Shown: piece by piece, positions 9,565 to 57,336 of the stretch
How positions within the stretch are numbered: position 1 is the stretch's first letter
Layout: each line of letters begins with the position of its first letter
Assembly: GCF_943736985.1 (NCBI RefSeq)
Contig: NZ_CALSFS010000014.1
Span: 30,753 to 94,752, forward strand
Length of the DNA: 64,000 nt
Source: Clostridium sp. Marseille-Q2269
GTDB lineage: Bacteria > Bacillota > Clostridia > Clostridiales > Clostridiaceae
Direction of reading: 5' to 3'
Notes under the pieces: generated by a model
The model's input: only the letters and a program-made list of their open reading frames with translations
Told to the model about the DNA's origin: nothing
Database searches by the model: none
Made by a program: the position numbers and the translations under genes

Positions 9565-10722
9565 TTACTCTAACTCATTTTCAAGAGATAGCATTTTTTC
9601 TTGTCTCATTTCATGCAAAGTTTTATGGCTACCTTTAATCATAGCCCAACAATAAATTCTAATTGTAGACCATCCAGTAACCTTCTGTCCCCATTTATTA
9701 AATGTAAGTTTTTCACCTTTAAAATCAACATATTTAGTATCAATAACTGTAGCTTCTGAATTATCTGCATTCTTAATCTTAGCAATGTCTCCTGCTTTAA
9801 TAATTCCCCACTCAAACAACTTATCCATTCCTGGAAGTATAGTTCTTGTAATGGGTGTATCTCTTTTAGTTGCATATGTAGGTAGTTTTTTATTATCCAC
9901 CTCAACATAAAAATCTTCTAAAGAAGGTGGGGGTAATATTCTATTAATATCTATAAAATAACTATCCTCTATTTTCATTGGACTTAATTCAAAGCAGCTA
10001 ATATCAACATCATTTGATATTAGTCAAGCTGCAGCTGATAATGTTTGCTTATCAAAGTATGATGCTATAAGTATTATTCTTTGTTTTGAATTAAAGGTTT
10101 TTAATGCATTATTCTTTTCAAGAAAATCATTTAAAATTCTTGATGCTTTTTCATAAGCAGTTAAATCTCCAAGTTCAAATTCATCTCTATATTTTTCAAT
10201 ATATGATGCAAATATTTTATCAACTAAATCATCTGGAGTTTTGATTTTAGCATAACTTGCAGCATACCTTATAGCTTGAAATTCAAAAGCTTCTTTTCTT
10301 TGCCTAATATCTTCAACATCTCTTTTAATTTCAATAAGTACAAGATTACCATTTTCATCTACTGCTGTTAAATCACTTCTACCATTTTCTTTGTTTACAA
10401 CTTGCTTTCCAACCACAAGAAGAGTTTCTTCTTGAAATATAACTTCTATGTTCTTTCTTAAGAATTCTTCTATATGTTCTTCTCTTAAGTTTAAAGATTT
10501 AAAGTTTGTATTTTCTATTTCAATATCTTCAAGTTCTATAGAGTCTTTCATTTTTACTGGAATTAACATATGGTTTACCTGCCTAACTATTTTATATTTA
10601 AGATTATAGCCTTTAGAAATATTTGTATACTTACTACAGTTAAATTTTAAACTATATTTATTATTTATACTAACAATATTTATATCTTTCATTTTATTTT
10701 TTACTTTTTTGAGTACTAGCAT
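9565..10722 (-). pseudogene. NucS-like/RAMA-domain nuclease gene interrupted by an in-frame TGA
   Basis: The first part (10722-10027) carries a PD-(D/E)xK nuclease region with GRSDLTAVDENG and VLIEIKRD (D, E and K in the right order), like the NucS/DUF91 family. The second part (9978-9565) looks like a RAMA-type domain (LFEWGIIKAGDIAKI, VTGWSTIRIYCW). Both parts are in the same frame. Between them is only one TGA at 10024-10026, followed by an open stretch reading LISNDVDISCFELSP. Changing TGA to TGG would restore one protein of 385 residues. The start could be 10722 or the ATG at 10692; neither has a strong ribosome site. It sits directly downstream of the type I R-M genes and was probably a DNA-targeting defence nuclease. 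Confidence 0.8.
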
Positions 10723-11119: not shown

Positions 11120-12709
11120 TTAAATTTTTACGCCTAAAATCTTCAATTGTTCATTAATCTCAGCTTCAAGCTCAGCAATTTCCTTATTATCTTGCTCTAA
11201 CAGCTTATTTATTTCTTCTAAATCAATTGGTTCTTCTTCCTCAAAAGTATCAACATAACGTGGTATGTTTAAATTAAAATCATTTTCTCTAATTTCTTCA
11301 ATAGATGCTAAATGAGCATACTTTTCAACGTCTTTGCGTTCCTTATATGTTTTTATTATTTTATCAATATCTTCATCTCTTAAATTATTTTGATTTTTAT
11401 TCTTTTCAAAATCATTACTTGCATCAATAAATAATATATCTTTATTTTCACGATTCTTCTTTAACACTAAAATTACTGTTGGAATACTTGTTCCATAAAA
11501 TAAATTTGCTGGTAATCCAATTATTGTATCAAGATAATTTTTACCAATTAAAGTTTCTCTTATTTTTCCTTCTGCTGCACCTCTAAACAAAACTCCATGA
11601 GGTAAAACAATAGCCATTGTTCCAGTCTTATTTAAATGATATATACTATGCAATATAAAAGCATAATCTGCTTTTGAAGCTGGTGCTAACTTCCCATATT
11701 CACTAAAACGTGGGTCTTTTAATTTAGTTGAATCATTATCCCATTTTGCCGAATATGGTGGATTTGCAACTACTGCATCAAAGCTACGTGGATGATCAAT
11801 ACCTTTTGCATCTGGACCATCTGGCCAATCACTTTCCAAAGTATCAGCATTACTTAATACCATATTGTTATAAGATATACCATGCATCATCAAATTCATA
11901 CGTGCCAAGTTATATGTAGTTGTATTCAATTCTTGACCAAAGTACTTTATTGGAGTGCCTTTTGGTAATTCTTGACCTACAGTAAGTAATAAAGAACCTG
12001 ATCCCATTGTTGGGTCATATACACTAAATAATTCATCTGATTTTTCTACGCCTTCTGTTACTACTTTAGCTAAAATCTTACTTACTTGATGTGGTGTATA
12101 GAATTCTCCACCCTTTTTACCAGCACTAGCCGCAAATTGACCAATTAAGTATTCATATATTTCACCTAAAATATCTTTTCCATCATTACCTTTGTATTCA
12201 ATACTATCAACTAACTTTACTATATTGTTAAGTGATTTAGCGCGTTCATTTGTAGAACTTCCAAGACGAGAATCTCCTAAATTAATATCATTAAATACTC
12301 CGCGGAAATCTTTTACTGCTTCTTTATTTAATTCTGCATTTTTATTAAAGTTATCAAAAATAGTTTGATAGTCACTAGGAATAACTTGTGAATCATTAAT
12401 TTTATCAATCAATGACTGCCATGTATCCTTTGGAGTAATTGCATATCCTAAGCTTGCTGAAATATCTTGCAGATAATCTTCTAACTCTGACTCATCTACT
12501 TGTGAATTATAGGATTCATTAATAGACTCCCCATCTATAACGTCAATAACATTATTCTTTAACAAATACTCCTCTTGATGTTCTGATAAATATCTATAAA
12601 ACATAAATGCCAATATATAATTTTTGTACTCTGATGCATCCATCGTTCCACGTAATTCATTTGCCATTGCCCATAATTTATTAGTAATTGATTGTATATT
12701 ATTGCTCAT
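11120..12709 (-). CDS. hsdM: Type I restriction-modification system, DNA methyltransferase subunit
   Basis: 529-residue N6-adenine methyltransferase subunit. Order of regions: HsdM N-terminal helical domain (to about residue 140), SAM-binding region with YDPTMGSGSLL (motif I) near residue 230, catalytic NPPY in FDAVVANPPYSAKWD near 315, and a glutamate-rich helical tail that contacts HsdS. The ATG at 12709 follows AGAGAGGAAAT. It is the last intact gene of the R-M operon, 32 bases after hsdS. It methylates the target chosen by HsdS and is required for both modification and restriction. Confidence 0.96.
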   Translation of the reverse strand: MSNNIQSITNKLWAMANELRGTMDASEYKNYILAFMFYRYLSEHQEEYLLKNNVIDVIDGESINESYNSQVDESELEDYLQDISASLGYAITPKDTWQSLIDKINDSQVIPSDYQTIFDNFNKNAELNKEAVKDFRGVFNDINLGDSRLGSSTNERAKSLNNIVKLVDSIEYKGNDGKDILGEIYEYLIGQFAASAGKKGGEFYTPHQVSKILAKVVTEGVEKSDELFSVYDPTMGSGSLLLTVGQELPKGTPIKYFGQELNTTTYNLARMNLMMHGISYNNMVLSNADTLESDWPDGPDAKGIDHPRSFDAVVANPPYSAKWDNDSTKLKDPRFSEYGKLAPASKADYAFILHSIYHLNKTGTMAIVLPHGVLFRGAAEGKIRETLIGKNYLDTIIGLPANLFYGTSIPTVILVLKKNRENKDILFIDASNDFEKNKNQNNLRDEDIDKIIKTYKERKDVEKYAHLASIEEIRENDFNLNIPRYVDTFEEEEPIDLEEINKLLEQDNKEIAELEAEINEQLKILGVKI

Positions 12710-12741
12710 TATTTTTATTTCCTCTCTTTTATTAATTTGCT

Positions 12742-13977
12742 TTAGATAAACATCTGTTGTAAAAGTGCCTTCTTTTGTTGTTGTAAATGCTCTAACTTAC
12801 GCTGATGAATGGTGATAAGGTTTGATAATTTTTCAATAAAGTCAACGATTCTATTTTGTTCATCAATATCATGAGGAACGCAAATATTGCCTTCCAGAAA
12901 TCCTAAATCAGTAATGTTAACATTGTTCCTTGCCCCGACATTAACTAATGGATATAAATAGGCATCCAATCTACTCTTATCCTCAAAATAACTTTGAATA
13001 ATGCTAGAATTAACATCAGAAACACTATTATAAACGCAATATAAAGATGGAACTATACCTTCTATTCCTTTATTTGTCTTAATAATTCCATTTGGATAAC
13101 CTTTGATAGGAGATTTTGTGTATATAACATCTCCTTTATTTACTATACGGTAATTTTTAATTGATTCTTCTGTTGAACGTAGTCCAAAAAAGATATGTTT
13201 TTTTGTTAGTTCTGTACCTAATGATGCAGCAAGAACATCATCTTGAGTATATTTACCTGTATTATTTTTTTCAGTAGACGGGATTAATAACTCTCCCAAT
13301 TTACGCTGTTCCCACGGGCCAGTAAATCCCTGAAAACGAAGTTCTGGAAAATTTTCACCATTTCTAGGAAACATTTTTTGCAGCAAACTTTTCTTCTTAT
13401 CTTGTAAGTGATTTAACTTACGCTGATGAAGGGTGATAAGGCTATCGAGATTTTGAAAAAAGTTACCTATTTTCCTCTGCTCCTTTTTTGATGTGCTAGT
13501 CATTACTTCTAAAGATAACAAACATTCTGGACTAACTGATTGCCTTTTTGTAACGGTTCCTTCTTCAAATCTAAGTGCCTTTGATTTGAAATTTTCAGTT
13601 GTAACAATTCTTTCTATAAATGAAGGTTCTTCTTGTGTTGTGAAAGTCACATATATAGGAGAAATCACGCCTTTTCCATACTTATTTCTATCAATCGCTC
13701 CATATTTTAGATTAGCAGGATTATAGACAATATCATCAATTTCTGTAAGCAGATATTTTTTGGTAGTTTCATCTGAAATCAACTGGTCTCTATTATTTGT
13801 TTTTCTTTCTCTTAAAGGAATTACACCTTGCCCAGAAGCAAATGCAAGTCTTGGAGCATCTTCTGAAATTAATTGTGTTATTTGTCTTCTTTTAAGTATG
13901 TCTCCCAACTTACGCTGTTCCCAAGGGTCGGTGAATCCTGGAAATCTTAGCTTTGGTTTATTGTTGTTTTTTCCCAT
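12742..13977 (-). CDS. hsdS: Type I restriction-modification system, specificity subunit (two TRDs)
   Basis: 411-residue DNA-recognition subunit. The ATG at 13977 (MGKNNNKPKLRFPG) has AAGGAG just upstream; an open frame continues further but inside the preceding gene. Architecture is an internal duplication: PWEQRKLG, TRD1, spacer helix with SLITLHQRKLNHLQDKKKSLLQKMF; then PWEQRKLG again, TRD2, and closing helix NLITIHQRKLEHLQQQKKALLQQMF. Each TRD reads one half of a bipartite target. Near-identical repeats at both half-ends make the gene prone to domain shuffling. It overlaps the end of the rhuM gene by 20 bases. Confidence 0.95.
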   Translation of the reverse strand: MGKNNNKPKLRFPGFTDPWEQRKLGDILKRRQITQLISEDAPRLAFASGQGVIPLRERKTNNRDQLISDETTKKYLLTEIDDIVYNPANLKYGAIDRNKYGKGVISPIYVTFTTQEEPSFIERIVTTENFKSKALRFEEGTVTKRQSVSPECLLSLEVMTSTSKKEQRKIGNFFQNLDSLITLHQRKLNHLQDKKKSLLQKMFPRNGENFPELRFQGFTGPWEQRKLGELLIPSTEKNNTGKYTQDDVLAASLGTELTKKHIFFGLRSTEESIKNYRIVNKGDVIYTKSPIKGYPNGIIKTNKGIEGIVPSLYCVYNSVSDVNSSIIQSYFEDKSRLDAYLYPLVNVGARNNVNITDLGFLEGNICVPHDIDEQNRIVDFIEKLSNLITIHQRKLEHLQQQKKALLQQMFI

Positions 13978-14974
13978 TGTTAACTCCTTTAATCCTTCTG
14001 ATCTCCTTATCAAAATCAGAAACTATTTTTTGATTTTTGTTAAACTCTTGATATTCTCCTATTGCCTTTTCTTTAGCAGTGCTATGGGAAATACGTCCAT
14101 GACCTTTTAAGATTTCATAACGATTGAATTTCAAAAATTCATCAATACTTATCGCAAAATCTTCCATAGATAACAACGTTTCATCTTCAAGAAGTCGCTC
14201 AACATAGTCGAAATAAGCTGAGACGTTACGTTCAAGGCCCCTAATTTCCTTTTCTGATAAGTAATTTTTAGCCACAAGCACATCAGACTGCAAAATTCGG
14301 CCATTAGGAGAGTTCTTCCAAGTAGTAAGCCCCATATGTTCTTTATCTCTATCTGAACTATTATAAATAATTTCTGCAGCTGTTTTACCAGTTATTCCAA
14401 AATGAAATTTATTTTGAATAATTGCATAAAATTTTTTTGTGATTTGTGAATTTTTATCGTAGTCATATGAAATTTCTGCAAACACATCTGTGATTTGTTG
14501 CCAAATTCTACGTTCACTTGCTCTAATTGAGCGTACAGTTTCAAGTAACTCACGGAAGTAATCTTTACCCAAAACATTCTCACCTTGCTTCATGCGCTCA
14601 ACATCAATCTTAAATCCTTTTTTGATATAGTCTTTCAAAATATCAGTGGCCCAAATTCTAAATTTTGTTGCTTTTTGAGAATTAACACGGTAACCAACTG
14701 AAATAATGGCATCTAAATTATAAAACTTGACCTGTTTTGTTTGGGTTTTTCCTTCTATAGCGCCGTGCTTTGTGGTATTTGCCAAAACGGAAACAACCAC
14801 TTTCTCATCAAGCTCTTCAGACTGAAAAATGTTTTTAAAATGTTTGCTTATAGCAGAAACACCCACACCAAAAAGCTCAGATATAGCTTTCTGTGTCGCC
14901 CAGATTGTTTCATCTTTCATCACGACTTCGATTTTTTCATATTCATCATACATTAAAAATTGTATCTCGTTCAT
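13958..14974 (-). CDS. RhuM family protein inside the R-M operon
   Basis: 338-residue protein of the RhuM family (named after a Salmonella virulence gene but widely found in defence islands and next to type I R-M genes). Visible: N-terminal helix-turn-helix-like stretch IWATQKAISELFGVGVSAISKHF, then GYRVNSQKATKFRIWATDILKDYI, a conserved feature of the family, and ITGKTAAEIIYNSSDRDKEHMG. The N-terminal part suggests DNA binding. It starts 12 bases after hsdR with an AGAAGGTG site and overlaps hsdS by 20 bases, so it is an integral part of the operon. Its function is not established. Confidence 0.85.
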   Translation of the reverse strand: MNEIQFLMYDEYEKIEVVMKDETIWATQKAISELFGVGVSAISKHFKNIFQSEELDEKVVVSVLANTTKHGAIEGKTQTKQVKFYNLDAIISVGYRVNSQKATKFRIWATDILKDYIKKGFKIDVERMKQGENVLGKDYFRELLETVRSIRASERRIWQQITDVFAEISYDYDKNSQITKKFYAIIQNKFHFGITGKTAAEIIYNSSDRDKEHMGLTTWKNSPNGRILQSDVLVAKNYLSEKEIRGLERNVSAYFDYVERLLEDETLLSMEDFAISIDEFLKFNRYEILKGHGRISHSTAKEKAIGEYQEFNKNQKIVSDFDKEIRRIKGVNNGKKQQ

Positions 14975-14986
14975 TTAATCACCTTC

Positions 14987-17900
14987 TTAATTTTCTACTA
15001 ACTCATCAGCTAATTCATAAATGGCCTCACGCAAACCGTTGCGGTACTTGATTTTAGATAAGGCTTGTACATCTTTGCTGTGTGCTAAAGTCTTGTAATC
15101 CACGCTTGCTTTTGCAATTATATCTCGAATTTGACCAGTATCATCTAAATCTTGCACGCCATAACGATGGGGACTAAACAATTGGCGCATCTCTGCACTT
15201 GTAATAATATCTGTAATTCCCCATTTTACTCTAAAATCTAAGAATAGTCTATCAATACTTACATTGCTAGCCGCTTGAATAATTTGCTCACTATGGCTAA
15301 GCTTTACTGGATATTTAAGATTAGTACCCTCCGGCGGATAGTACCCTTTGATAATAGCCATTGCTGCATTTATAATTTTCATCGCGTAATTTCTATCATC
15401 TAATCCATTAGCAAATTGATCAATTCTCTCTTTCGTAGCTTGTGCTTCCTCTTTCTTACCATCATGTACTTGATTTAATAATTGTTCTACCAATTCAGTT
15501 AAATAATCATAATCTATTTTTACATCCTTCACATGAGTCATTTTTAACTCAATTTGATAAAAAGGAATTTTCTTTTCTTTTGATATATGTTGTTTAAGCT
15601 CATTGGTTAAAACTGTAGTAAGCATAGTTTCCTCTTCACTTGTCATGCCTAATTTTTCAACTAATTCATCAGGATTTTCATAATTGAAACCTACTGCATT
15701 TCCATCAACTTCTTCAGAGTTGTATTGCTTAAGTTTTGCCATACCAGCATTGTAATCACGTATTAATTCAAGCATATCTTCCTTTTTTTTCTCCGAAGGT
15801 GGTAATTGTTGAAATTCATTAGTTAAATCACTTAATTTTTTAACTGTCTCTTTTACTTCATTAAATACCTCTTCAAAAGGTTTTGCTACAATTCCATCTT
15901 TTTCATTAGCTTTACGTTGCTCCTCATCTGATAAAATTGCAGAATCCTTATTTGCATAAATTGCCAAAGCCTTATTCATAAGCTTCTCATTATATGCGGG
16001 CCAACGATAATTTACAATACGCCCCCAAGGTTTTTCTTGCATATCAGCAATACGATTTGTTCTTGAATAGGCTTGAATAAGTCCAGCCCCTTTAAGTGTT
16101 CTATCTACATAAAGGGTATTAAGTTCTGGTGCATCAAATCCAGTCAAAAGTTGATCTACCACAATTACAATATCTAAGTAATTCTTATCTGTAGCAGTTT
16201 TATTCAGACGACTAGTAACATCTTGTGTATATCCTGCTACATCATCCATGCCAAAGCTTGTACTAAATTCTTTATTATAAATATCTATCGCTTCAAATAA
16301 GCCTTTATTAGTTTCAAGCATACTATCATTATTGGAAGTATTTAAACTAAATGTAATTGCAACCTTCAGTACTTGTTTGTCATTCTTCCTATTCTCATCA
16401 TTTACTCGCTTAAACTCTCTAAAATACATCATCGCCATTGGTGTACTAGCCTTTCCGCCGCCTACATGCGTTGTAAATAATGCATTATACTTACCTTCAT
16501 TTGAACGATTTCTCCAGTTAGTAAAGATATCTTCAACTACAAGTTTTACATGGTCAAGATTTTCATCATAAAAACTTGGTTCAACTGCATCATCCATATC
16601 TTCTTGACTTAGATTATTAATCTTTTCTATAATTTTTTCTTCAGTCCACTTTGGATAACGTTCTCTGTAAAAGTTTGGTAGGTATTCTAATTTCATTTGT
16701 TCTTCATCAATTGTTGTTTCAAAATCAACTTTAAAACCCAAAACATTTCTATCTGCTATTGCTTCACGAATGGTATAAGCATGTAAAAGTGGTCCAAAAA
16801 TATCTTCAGTTCGTAAACCACTAGTAGTCTCATCAAACATTGGTGTTCCTGTATAACCAACCCAAGCAGACTTTTTAAAAGCCTTTTGTATCTTTTCAAA
16901 ACTTTCACCACCAGTTGAACGATGTGCCTCATCCACGATAAATACAATATTTTTATCAGGTGATTTAAAAGACTTACGTTTTACTAAGGTATCAAGCTTT
17001 TGAACAGAAGTAACAACAATATTATTATCTTTGCTCTTTAGTTTACGACTTAAATCATTAGTATTATATGTATTTTGAACACTGCCAATGGTATCTTCAC
17101 TAGCATCTGGATCATATGCTCTATAATTTTCATTTGTTTGTTTTGTTAAAGCAATTCTATCTACCACAAATACTACTTTATCAACTTTAGGCATACGACT
17201 TGCAAGCCAAGCTGTTTTAAAACTAGTTATTGTTTTACCAGAACCAGTAGTATGCCAGATATAACCTACTTTATTTGTACCAAACTCAAAATCAACTCGT
17301 TTTAAATTTTCAATTACATTCTGGGTAGCATATACTTGATATGGGCGCATTACCTTTAGCATTTGTTTGTTTTTTGTGCCATCCAAAATCATATAATTAG
17401 TAGCCATTTGATGTGCCATTGGAATACTTAACATTGAATCAGCAAACTCTTTCCAATTACGTACAATGGTATTATCACTTTTACGTTGCCAGTTAAAAGC
17501 AAAGTCTTTATTAAACTTATCTGATGTGGTATTAGCCATATACTTCACGTTATTTGGTGTAATTGCCACCAATATTTGCAGAGTAGAAAAAATATCCCGA
17601 TATTGGTTTTCCTCAGAATATTGATGCATTTGATTTAGTGCTTCATTGACATCATGTGTATCACGTTTTTCTTCAATTTGTATTATAGGTAAACCATTAA
17701 TAAGAAGTGTCGTATCAAAACGACGATTTTGTTTTCCAGTGATAACTGCAGGACGTTCAATCTGATTAACTACTTGATACACTGTATCTCCAGCACCAAT
17801 TTGTTTTTGATCAAAAACTGTTAAAAACACGTGACGACCGTCATCTAAGTCAATTTCCATTTGTGATACCCCATTAAGTCCATATAAAAATTGTCCAGCT

Positions 17901-18196
17901 TCATATGGTGTTTGAATATTAGATATAATCTTTTTCACTTGATTAAATTCTACAGTACTTAAAGGATGATCAAGTGTATTTTGATTGTGCCTCTCAAGAA
18001 TCTCTTTAAAGTTGTCCCAAAGCTTTTCTGTAGTTTTAATTTTTGGTTCATACTTCCACAGTTTTGTTTTTATACAGTAATCAGCAGGTTTTTCTCTAAC
18101 AATAAAATCACTGATTCCTTCTAGGTGTTCAGGTTTAGTTATTGTTCCACTGGTAATATACTGTATTAACTCAGTTTCAAATTGCTCTTCATTCAT
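14987..18196 (-). CDS. hsdR: Type I restriction-modification system, restriction subunit
   Basis: 1069-residue motor and nuclease subunit. The N-terminal PD-(D/E)xK nuclease region includes RFDTTLLINGLPIIQIEEKRD (D...ExK, about residue 160-180). The SF2 translocase has Walker A HTTGSGKT near 320, DEAH box IVDEAHRS near 425, and VGYTGTPMFDE; motif VI is AYSRTNRI near 720. The C-terminal helical region binds the methylase core. It begins by overlapping the half-hsdS gene (ATGA) and is full length without interruptions, so restriction should be active if HsdS and HsdM are. Confidence 0.96.
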   Translation of the reverse strand: MNEEQFETELIQYITSGTITKPEHLEGISDFIVREKPADYCIKTKLWKYEPKIKTTEKLWDNFKEILERHNQNTLDHPLSTVEFNQVKKIISNIQTPYEAGQFLYGLNGVSQMEIDLDDGRHVFLTVFDQKQIGAGDTVYQVVNQIERPAVITGKQNRRFDTTLLINGLPIIQIEEKRDTHDVNEALNQMHQYSEENQYRDIFSTLQILVAITPNNVKYMANTTSDKFNKDFAFNWQRKSDNTIVRNWKEFADSMLSIPMAHQMATNYMILDGTKNKQMLKVMRPYQVYATQNVIENLKRVDFEFGTNKVGYIWHTTGSGKTITSFKTAWLASRMPKVDKVVFVVDRIALTKQTNENYRAYDPDASEDTIGSVQNTYNTNDLSRKLKSKDNNIVVTSVQKLDTLVKRKSFKSPDKNIVFIVDEAHRSTGGESFEKIQKAFKKSAWVGYTGTPMFDETTSGLRTEDIFGPLLHAYTIREAIADRNVLGFKVDFETTIDEEQMKLEYLPNFYRERYPKWTEEKIIEKINNLSQEDMDDAVEPSFYDENLDHVKLVVEDIFTNWRNRSNEGKYNALFTTHVGGGKASTPMAMMYFREFKRVNDENRKNDKQVLKVAITFSLNTSNNDSMLETNKGLFEAIDIYNKEFSTSFGMDDVAGYTQDVTSRLNKTATDKNYLDIVIVVDQLLTGFDAPELNTLYVDRTLKGAGLIQAYSRTNRIADMQEKPWGRIVNYRWPAYNEKLMNKALAIYANKDSAILSDEEQRKANEKDGIVAKPFEEVFNEVKETVKKLSDLTNEFQQLPPSEKKKEDMLELIRDYNAGMAKLKQYNSEEVDGNAVGFNYENPDELVEKLGMTSEEETMLTTVLTNELKQHISKEKKIPFYQIELKMTHVKDVKIDYDYLTELVEQLLNQVHDGKKEEAQATKERIDQFANGLDDRNYAMKIINAAMAIIKGYYPPEGTNLKYPVKLSHSEQIIQAASNVSIDRLFLDFRVKWGITDIITSAEMRQLFSPHRYGVQDLDDTGQIRDIIAKASVDYKTLAHSKDVQALSKIKYRNGLREAIYELADELVEN

Positions 18197-18768
18197 TTCT
18201 CACATGCCTCCTCTAACTTGGATAATCTGATTTTTGTTTCAAGTTCTGCTGTTCTATTTCTAAGGGCTTGTAGCCTTAATTGATTAAAATAAACTTGTCC
18301 TATAATTTTTTGCTTATCTATGGAAGGTATTTTCGGTATTTCAAGCTGTTTAAGTTGCTTTAGAGTATATTTTAAAACTTGAGACCCTTGTAGTCCCAGA
18401 ACAAACTGTTTCTTGATTGTTCTGTTTTCATTAATAAGATAAACTAAAAACTTTGAATCAATTTTATTGCTAGGTAATAACTTAACGTAGTTTTGCGTAT
18501 AAATATATCCATCATGCTCTTTTCTTACTATAGTTGCAATTCCCGTGATTAAACTAAATACTACATCACCATGGCATAAGGTATTTAATTTATCATTGGT
18601 TCTGACTTGTTTATTGACCACAGTTTTTGAAATAATACCTACCAAATCATCTGTTAAATCTGTTTGACTATAATAAGTAAAAAGAGGTGTTTTTTCATCA
18701 AACACTTCAGTAATTCTAAACTGAGGCGACCCACTTACTAACTCAACTAATTTGCTTAACTTTTCCAT
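18193..18768 (-). CDS. Half-size HsdS-like specificity protein upstream of hsdR
   Basis: 191-residue protein with one HsdS-type target-recognition domain and one C-terminal helix (LQALRNRTAELETKIRLSKLEE), about half of a normal HsdS. The segment KQLKQLEIPKIPSIDKQKIIGQ matches the typical end of a TRD. It is the first gene of the operon, preceded by a good promoter but only a weak AAAGG ribosome site, and its stop overlaps the hsdR start (ATGA). It shares little sequence with the full HsdS at 12742-13977. It could dimerise to give a second specificity, or compete with HsdS. No sign of frameshift: it is compact and ends cleanly. Confidence 0.8.
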   Translation of the reverse strand: MEKLSKLVELVSGSPQFRITEVFDEKTPLFTYYSQTDLTDDLVGIISKTVVNKQVRTNDKLNTLCHGDVVFSLITGIATIVRKEHDGYIYTQNYVKLLPSNKIDSKFLVYLINENRTIKKQFVLGLQGSQVLKYTLKQLKQLEIPKIPSIDKQKIIGQVYFNQLRLQALRNRTAELETKIRLSKLEEACEK

Positions 18769-18969: not shown

Positions 18970-19038
18970 TAATTACATTTCCAATTTCTATCTTCAAAAC
19001 TTGTTTTTCAAACACTTCATTTTCTCCAAAAAACACTA

Positions 19039-19062
19039 AAAGCCACTGAAATCAGTGACTTT
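19039..19062 (-). terminator. Terminator of the tmRNA gene
   Basis: Arms AAAGCCACTGA / TCAGTGACTTT (one position pairs as G-U in RNA) with a two-base gap, followed on the minus strand by TTAGTGTTTTTT. It lies about 30 bases after the CCA end of ssrA. Confidence 0.7.
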
Positions 19063-19090
19063 CTATTGTATCAATATTATAGTTTATGTA

Positions 19091-19734
19091 TGGTGGAGGC
19101 GAGGGGACATGTTATTCCATTATCTCTAATGGCACTGACTATATCTTATGGTGAAAACTTGTAAGTTTTCATCATCTTGGCATGTTATAGAAGTTATATT
19201 ATAGTTTTAAACTTCTATCCTAGTATTTCTTACTTAAGAAAATTTTATTTCTTAAGGTTAGAAACCTATGAGTCGATACACGGCTGTTGGGTTTCCCCAC
19301 ATACCACTCGGTATTGCCGACGCCTTTACGTTTCGGTTTCACCGATAAAGCCAAGTTTTCACTTATGAATTACTTCATAAGGCGACTCTCTTTTGAATCG
19401 AACCCCTGTCCGAAAGCAGCAACCCCTGAGCATCTCCGAGTGCAGTTTATCCTTTTACATTCCCTCCTCTAAGCGCCGATAAACAGGCTCTTAGATTTAG
19501 TAGCTTCATTAATTCCGTTCCTTACTCAAAGCTTTGTAAGGCTCGGGACCCCACTGTCGACGCCAGGCCCTAAGTCGTGGGTCTCTTAGGCTGACGAGCT
19601 GCAACTATTAGGCAGCTAATGCAAAATTATCGTTTGCGATTATCTTTAAGTTCCCAGTTTTTTAACGCAGGTACAGGATCCCTTCGACTCGCTTCTCAGG
19701 AGCAACTTGCCCCCGTCGAAACCATTGCGCCCCC
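19091..19734 (-). ncRNA. ssrA: tmRNA (ssrA), interrupted by a group I intron
   Basis: Rescues stalled ribosomes with SmpB. 5' end GGGGGCGCAATGGTTTCGAC at 19734 pairs with the 3' end CGCCTCC-ACCA (19097-19091) to form the acceptor stem. The tag reading frame at 19637-19608 is GCA AAC GAT ... GCC TAA, encoding ANDNFALAA, followed by TAG. The T arm begins GGACAGGGGTTCGAT, then breaks off at 19397; the rest, TCCCCTCGCCTCCACCA, resumes at 19107. Removing the 289-base insert gives a normal T arm and a mature RNA of about 355 bases. smpB lies 1.5 kb further right on the same strand, with a symporter gene between. Confidence 0.95.
19108..19396 (-). ncRNA. Group I intron in the tmRNA T loop
   Basis: 289-base insert between GGTTCGAT and TCCCCTCG of the T arm. 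It fits group I rules: the upstream exon ends in U and the intron ends in G (ACATG). The core carries GACTCATA (P7 5' strand with GACT) and the common AAGATATAGTC (P7 3' strand with AGTC), plus several stable hairpins such as ATCGGTGAAACCGA, GTCGGCAATACCGA and GTGGGGAAACCCA. It contains no homing-endonuclease frame, so it is not independently mobile. Group I introns in the T loop of tmRNA genes have, as I recall, been reported in some clostridia. Confidence 0.85.
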
Positions 19735-21879: not shown

Positions 21880-22350
21880 TTAATATTTACTTCTTTCTTT
21901 AATCTGTCTATCTATTTCTCTTTTTGCTGCTTTTTCTAGCATAACATCTCTCTTATCATAATTTTTCTTACCCTTAGCCACAGCTAAACTAACTTTTACT
22001 CTTCCATGCTTAAGGTATAATGATAGAGGAACTAGCGTGTATCCTTGTTGAGTTGTAAATCCTACCAACTTATATATTTCGCTTTTGTGAAGTAATAATT
22101 TTCTATCTCTTAAGGGATCTTTATTATATATATTACCTTGCTCGTAAGGACTTATATGCATATTTCTAACAAAAACTTCTCCATTTCTAATATCAGCATA
22201 ACTATCTTTCAAATTTGCTTTTCCTTGCCTTATAGATTTAACTTCTGTTCCTACTAATTCTATACCTGCTTCATAGGTTTCTTCTATAAAATAATCATGC
22301 CTTGCTTTTCTATTTTCTGCAAGAGTACTGTTTCCCTTCTTTTTACTCAT
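21880..22350 (-). CDS. smpB: SsrA-binding protein SmpB
   Basis: 156-residue tmRNA-binding protein that brings tmRNA to stalled ribosomes. Family marks: [39 protein letters not shown], and the basic C-terminal tail [20 protein letters not shown] that enters the mRNA channel. Length is typical. It is on the same strand as ssrA, 2.1 kb from it, with the symporter on the opposite strand in between. surE lies 88 bases upstream and rnr further on. Confidence 0.97.
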
Positions 22351-54420: not shown

Positions 54421-54712
54421 AAAAAACTCCATCTCTATAAAATATATAGAGACGAAGTATATGCTCCGTGGTTCCACTCTAGTTAGATATTAACAATCCA
54501 CTTTATCAGGTACTTAATAAACTAAATACCTTATCACTATAACGGGCGAACCCGATGCAGCCTACTTTATTCGGTGCATAACTCCAAAGGGCACTTCACA
54601 TAAACCTTCTTTAGAAATTTTCCAGCAAATTAATTTCCTCTCTTGAAAGATTGATTATACTACTTTCCTTCTTCAACGTTTTTATTTCCGACTATTTTAG
54701 TACGAATTCTAT
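54421..54712 (-). promoter_or_regulatory. T-box leader of the cysK-cysE operon (cysteine specifier UGC)
   Basis: Stem I begins with GAAGAAGGAAAGTAG and AGAGAGG. The candidate specifier UGC (54593-54591) lies in GAAGUGCCCUUUGGAG. The T-box AGAGTGGAACCACGG is at 54480-54466. Its terminator has arms CTTCGTCTCTATA and TATAGAGATGGAG (54457-54427), ending in six or more T. Uncharged tRNA-Cys should pair with UGC and allow read-through into cysteine synthesis. Specifier and downstream genes agree. Confidence 0.9.
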
Positions 54713-57103: not shown

Positions 57104-57310
57104 AAAAGAGCCTATAGGCTCCTTATATACATAACTAAAACTTTAAAATTAATCAACATCAATCGTTGAGTTTTAGCACTATATAGCTTTGGACCATTGC
57201 CAGCTACATTAAGTAAAACCTTATGTCGGTAATACCTGGTGACCCATTGGCATCTCTCGATGTTTCCGGGCAGTAGCGTATATCTATATAGGAGCCTCAC
57301 CTAACGTACA
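57104..57310 (-). promoter_or_regulatory. M-box (ykoK-type) magnesium riboswitch
   Basis: Conserved 5' part GTTAGGTGAGGCTCCTATAT (from 57305), then ATACGCTACTGCCCGGAAAC, GATGCCAATGGGTCACCAGG, and the 3' element AGTGCTAAAACTCAACGATTG. A terminator follows: GAGCC (57112-57108) pairs with GGCTC (57121-57117), with T run after. High Mg2+ stabilises the terminator form. Controls the MgtE-N/CBS gene at 55661-56926. Confidence 0.93.
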
Positions 57311-57336
57311 TTATTAAGATTTTGTCTTATATTTTT

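What the first reader, a model, noticed from the sequence alone, without database searches (positions are those of the whole stretch)
19091..19734. tmRNA gene split by a group I intron in its T loop
The T arm reads GGGGTTCGAT, is broken by 289 bases, then resumes TCCCCTCGCCTCCACCA. The insert has the group I marks (U before, final G, GACT / AGTC of P7 with AAGATATAGTC). Self-splicing must happen before tmRNA can be charged, so intron splicing could tie ribosome rescue to Mg2+, guanosine or temperature. I recall such introns in tmRNA genes of some clostridia, so the class is not new, but its effect on physiology is little known.
Basis: partly seen in the sequence, partly recalled or inferred. 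Interest (0 to 1): 0.72.

Follow-up and report, generated by a model that had tools for sequence, protein, structure and literature searches.

The report
Known self-splicing intron in tmRNA gene
A ribosome-rescue RNA gene of a Clostridium-like bacterium is interrupted by what looks like a self-splicing intron, a real and well-formed feature of a kind already described in many bacteria and therefore ordinary.

Summary
On the minus strand, 19734-19091 is an ssrA (tmRNA) gene whose T loop is interrupted by 289 bases (19396-19108). The insert is a group I intron: U before the 5' splice site, U·G in P1, final G, and helices P2 to P9 with the P3/P7 pseudoknot. On an alignment with 12 related introns, 98.5% of cells form standard pairs and 31 of 64 pairs change on both sides. 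Rfam's general group I model scores 27.8 bits (E 6.5e-5), below its threshold of 50; 0 of the 12 sister introns reaches it either. The class is published: 883 unique tmRNA sequences with T-loop group I introns (PMC11915505), and the Clostridium botulinum one, with the same 338-nt 5' exon and a 287-nt intron, is called previously shown to self-splice (PMC2729099). No test here bears on the idea that splicing regulates ribosome rescue. The window's own genome is not held, so a second ssrA could not be excluded; 46 of 46 intron-bearing family genomes lack an intact T arm by exact pattern. Verdict: real, already known, low interest.

The parts
19397..19734 (-). 5' exon of ssrA (tmRNA), 338 nt, from acceptor stem to the sixth base (U) of the T loop
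   Evidence: RF00023 138.8 bits over 19394-19726; acceptor stem pairs
19611..19637 (-). tag reading frame GCA...GCC = ANDNFALAA, followed by TAA
   Evidence: read by hand; RF00023 alignment covers the segment
19108..19396 (-). group I intron, 289 nt, between the sixth and seventh base of the T loop
   Evidence: RF00028 27.8 bits, E 6.5e-5, below gathering; 12 homologous introns at the same site; covariation
19383..19400 (-). P1: exon CGAU (19400-19397) with intron GUCG (19386-19383), U-G at the splice site; the hairpin can extend by UC/GA
   Evidence: sequence; the six-pair hairpin is in the free-energy fold
19362..19381 (-). P2, 8 pairs
   Evidence: 5 of 8 pairs change on both sides, 100% paired
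19176..19355 (-). P3: 19355-19350 with 19181-19176
   Evidence: 3 of 6 pairs change on both sides, 100% paired
19282..19345 (-). P4 (19345-19341/19312-19308), P5 (19336-19333/19320-19317), P6 (19305-19303/19284-19282) with P6a between
   Evidence: positions; pair counts (P4: 0 of 5 pairs change on both sides, 1 on one side)
19137..19274 (-). P7: 19274-19271 (GACU) with 19140-19137 (AGUC)
   Evidence: 13 of 13 sequences paired, no variation, so covariation is silent
19187..19268 (-). P7.1 (19268-19261/19229-19221) and P7.2 (19218-19210/19195-19187), extra helices between P7 and the 3' strand of P3
   Evidence: 8 of 16 pairs change on both sides
19117..19170 (-). P8 (19170-19164/19159-19153) and P9 (19132-19127/19122-19117)
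   Evidence: 10 of 13 pairs change on both sides; P8 88.3% and P9 97.4% of cells paired
19108..19108 (-). terminal G of the intron
   Evidence: G in 13 of 13 sequences
19091..19107 (-). 3' exon: rest of T arm, acceptor strand, encoded CCA
19038..19063 (-). terminator-like hairpin after ssrA
   Evidence: fold
21880..22350 (-). smpB, upstream on the same strand

Best explanation
This is a normal ssrA gene carrying a group I intron in its T loop. The precursor folds, P1 places the 5' splice site at a U-G pair, an external guanosine attacks it, the freed 5' exon then attacks after the terminal G, and the exons join to give an intact T arm (established group I chemistry, recalled). The mature RNA would then be charged with alanine and used with SmpB for trans-translation. 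Shown here: gene, intron, structure, kinship with 12 introns at the same site. Inferred: that it splices in the cell, and that it has little effect on the host. Most likely it is an old intron kept mainly by vertical descent with repeated loss; it is too short for an endonuclease gene, and no minus-strand ORF of 60 aa or more lies in it (two opposite-strand ORFs of 61 and 63 aa overlap it).
For: RF00023 138.8 bits ending at the insert. RF00028 E 6.5e-5 over 19116-19406. 12 of 80 smpB loci carry a homologous intron at the same site, each after U and ending in G. Group I structure on 13 introns: 98.5% of 801 cells paired against 84.7% in shuffles; 31 of 64 pairs with changes on both sides against 19.5 (0 of 500 shuffles as high); slid structures 32.5-45.1% paired. 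The fold of 19410-19091 has z -5.77 and contains P1, P2 and P3. At least 46 of 206 family genomes have a match running into the intron (list cut), and 0 of these 46 has an exact intact T arm of either form searched (recount in 52). Papers, passages only: 883 unique intron-form tmRNAs, most at one subsite that I equate with this one (PMC11915505); C. botulinum tmRNA intron listed among introns previously shown to self-splice (PMC2729099).
Against: RF00028 is below its gathering score here and in 12 of 12 sister introns. P7, the guanosine-binding helix (recalled), never varies in 13 sequences and P4 only on one side, so they have no covariation support. P8 has 88.3% of cells paired. The count of further pair types was reached by 11 of 500 shuffles. 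No RNA data. Vertical descent is a broad reading: many branches are weak, the intron state needs at least 9 changes on the SmpB tree of 63 rows, and the intron tree sets L010 apart from the window group, weakly.
Confidence: 0.96

Rival explanations
1. The intron is a regulatory device: its splicing rate, set by Mg2+, guanosine or temperature, tunes the supply of mature tmRNA.
For: Group I splicing needs guanosine and Mg2+ and a normal T arm needs splicing (established, recalled). No tool result here supports it.
Against: The intron is absent from 50 of 62 resolved loci, so relatives do without it. I saw no extra domain beyond the group I helices and P7.1/P7.2. Full-text searches listed no title or abstract start on such regulation (with 40 of 105 papers listed, 26, 28, 29, 50).
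Confidence: 0.05
2. The gene is a degraded copy and another intact ssrA serves the cell.
For: The own genome could not be searched.
Against: Core helices, splice-site rules, acceptor stem, tag frame and smpB neighbour are intact; 0 of 46 intron-bearing family genomes shows an intact T arm by exact pattern.
Confidence: 0.02
3. The insert is not a group I intron but a chance or other insert.
For: No RF00028 match at gathering.
Against: RF00028 E 6.5e-5, homologues at one site, covariation.
Confidence: 0.005

Closest known systems
Clostridium botulinum tmRNA group I intron (PMC2729099, passages; PMC1995217 cites Williams 2002 for it; that paper was not held)
   Same: tmRNA host gene, 338-nt 5' exon, substrate oligonucleotide CGAU as in P1 here
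   Different: 287 nt there, 289 nt here; the sequences were not compared because none was at hand
tmRNA_intron class of PMC11915505 (passages)
   Same: T-loop site, U at -1, final G; 843 founding introns average 293 nt
   Different: no difference found; no endonuclease gene here, while 36 of 883 have one
Rfam RF00028 Group I catalytic intron
   Same: aligns from P1 to P9
   Different: scores below the curated threshold, as do 12 of 12 sister introns

Membership tests
tmRNA (RF00023) | covariance model above gathering score | tested here: met
   138.8 bits against 47
tmRNA (RF00023) | tRNA-like acceptor stem with third pair G-U, encoded CCA, tag ending in LAA (features recalled) | tested here: met
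   tag read by hand
Group I intron | RF00028 above gathering score | tested here: not met
   27.8 bits against 50, E 6.5e-5; 12 of 12 sister introns also miss it, so the threshold does not pick up this subgroup
Group I intron | core helices P3, P4, P6, P7, P8 with the P3/P7 pseudoknot | tested here: met
   P7 and P4 present but not supported by changes on both sides
Group I intron | U-G in P1 at the 5' splice site and G as last intron base | tested here: met
   13 of 13 have U before the intron, the AGUCG strand of P1 and a final G
Group I intron | guanosine-dependent self-splicing | not tested
   no bench data; the C. botulinum intron is said to self-splice in PMC2729099
tmRNA_intron class (PMC11915505) | group I intron in the T loop at a known subsite | tested here: met
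   between loop bases 6 and 7, in 12 homologues too; equating this with the paper's position 7 is my reading
tmRNA_intron class (PMC11915505) | match to the published tmRNA_intron covariance model | not testable with these tools
   the model is in a supplementary file, and supplement look-ups are capped at 0

The most novel reading that the evidence does not exclude
The intron makes tmRNA maturation conditional, so that ribosome rescue in this lineage is gated by splicing conditions, and the intron is kept by selection for that.
Probability: 0.05. Interest if true: 0.6.

Novelty: already known. Interest (0 to 1): 0.15.

Why it matters
It explains why a gene finder misses this ssrA and gives an aligned, covariation-tested set of 13 introns. 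The open question, whether such introns affect ribosome rescue at all, belongs to the whole class and is not raised by this locus in particular.

Tried and rejected
RF00028 gathering threshold as the sole test of membership: set aside, because it fails 12 of 12 relatives. The pattern GTTCRAYN{3,33}RTCGCC was too loose (188 of 206 genomes, with backward-read controls about as frequent) and was not used. The idea that U at -1 marks intron-bearing genes: in the named loci 12 of 12 introns follow U, while of 52 intronless loci 43 have C and 9 U (L042 breaks off inside the T loop and L043 at the gene's end, both left out of the tree). But among 206 family genomes an exact intact T arm occurs with C in 91 and with U in 55, three genomes having both, and the tree-based test had only 3 independent pairs on supported branches (median p 0.25). 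So this is just the known need for U, with U common anyway. A phage or plasmid home: no match in plasmids; two short matches in phages, one to the tmRNA part at 68.7% and one of 36 bases in the intron's 3' part. A second copy of the 3' exon as an island end: none in the window. The FsrA match inside the intron is below threshold and taken as chance. No covariance model was built; I judged from the tool's description that an intron of about 290 positions would exceed its calibration limit and did not try.

Full report
What is there. The minus strand of 19734-19091 holds one ssrA gene. RF00023 matches with 138.8 bits and runs out where the insert starts. The seven acceptor pairs between the far ends of the gene are all standard. 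The tag frame at 19637-19611 reads ANDNFALAA by hand. ARAGORN reports no tmRNA. smpB lies upstream on the same strand at 21880-22350.

What the insert is. The 289-nt insert (19396-19108) sits between the sixth and seventh base of the T loop. Exon CGAU pairs with intron GUCG, giving U-G at the splice site; the intron ends in G. RF00028 gives 27.8 bits, E 6.5e-5, against a gathering score of 50. That shortfall is general: in the 12 related loci RF00023 matches above threshold 12 of 12 times and RF00028 0 of 12.

Relatives. A search with SmpB kept the best 80 of at least 536 related stretches in named genomes. nhmmer with the 5' exon matched 68 of the 80 loci, and with the intron 12 of 80 (recount). 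64 of the 68 exon matches were nearly complete: 12 with the intron, 52 without. In 12 of 12 the intron lies at the same T-loop site, after U, and ends in G. Two of the 52 end at a contig edge, which leaves 62 loci plus the window for the tree. Identity of the window intron to the 12 is 60.9-80.3% over aligned bases.

Structure. I drew a group I structure on the window intron and counted it on the 13-intron alignment. It has 64 pairs in 11 helices. 98.5% of 801 cells are standard pairs (84.7% in shuffles), 31 pairs have a change on both sides (19.5 in shuffles, 0 of 500 as high), and sliding the partners drops pairing to 32.5-45.1%. The number of further pair types was reached by 11 of 500 shuffles. 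Because the structure was drawn from one of the sequences, it has an advantage over the slid versions on cells paired. P7 does not vary and P4 varies only on one side, so these are conserved but not covarying. P7.1 and P7.2 between P7 and P3 recall the IA subgroup; that label is from memory.

Spread. On the SmpB tree of 63 rows the intron state needs at least 9 changes; most branches are not well supported. Caldicoprobacter oshimai (L028) has the intron and C. algeriensis (L034) does not. The tree of the 13 introns and that of their SmpB proteins agree on a Bacillaceae group and on L028 with L059 and L067; both put the window nearest by path to L010, L011 and L018, though the intron tree sets L010 apart, weakly. 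I read this as old residence with losses; the counts cannot tell gain from loss. 0 of those 46 has an intact T arm by the two exact patterns, so the split gene seems to be the only one there; 17 of 206 genomes fall in none of the three sets, which shows that the patterns and the list do not catch everything.

Literature. PMC11915505 (passages) reports 883 unique intron-form tmRNA sequences, 21 phyla, four T-loop subsites, most introns at position 7, and 36 of 883 with an endonuclease gene. PMC2729099 (passages) used the C. [quoted passage not shown] PMC1995217 (passages) cites Williams 2002 for it; that paper was not held. Among the listed titles and abstract starts (40 of 105 papers; none), 28, 29 and 50 I saw none on regulation by this intron. 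No paper was read whole.

Conclusion. The window is probably from the neighbourhood of C. botulinum and C. sporogenes (inference from the equal exon length and a recalled tag; a search for the tag in papers gave nothing; the species was not identified). The regulatory idea remains a guess.

Noticed in passing
window 19066-19074 (minus strand): TTGATACAA lies 19 bases past the CTCCA of the tmRNA end. The motif TTGATAC[AG]A occurs within 120 bases behind ssrA in 8 of 63 rows (62 loci and the window), 7 of them at offset 18-19 once the window's count is put on the same footing, against about 0.0026 expected per 120 bases. The bases around it differ between loci; it may be an integrase or terminator-linked site.
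   Followed up: partly
window 11120-18768: A type I restriction-modification set (HsdM, HsdS, HsdR and a short second HsdS) with a RhuM-family gene inside it lies directly behind ssrA. tmRNA genes are common island sites (PMC11915505), but no repeated ssrA end was found in the window. HsdR, HsdM and the long HsdS had no tblastn match in the 109 fetched loci, while SmpB matched 101.
   Followed up: partly
window 10024-10722 (minus strand): Protein of 232 aa without a Pfam match that resembles PADLOC family PDC-S11, E 5.7e-23.
   Followed up: no
window 57151-57316 and 54445-54685 (minus strand): M-box magnesium riboswitch and a T-box leader above Rfam thresholds.
   Followed up: no
L053 1132-1435 and L073 6875-7180: The introns of Anaerovirgula and Anaerosolibacter carry a long insert in the loop of P7.2 that is partly alike in both (alignment).
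   Followed up: no
L084 1501-1526: A 26-base A+T-rich match (E 1.6e-4) to the P7.2 stretch of the intron elsewhere in the C. peptidivorans genome, whose own ssrA has no intron; quite possibly chance.
   Followed up: no
   Followed up: no
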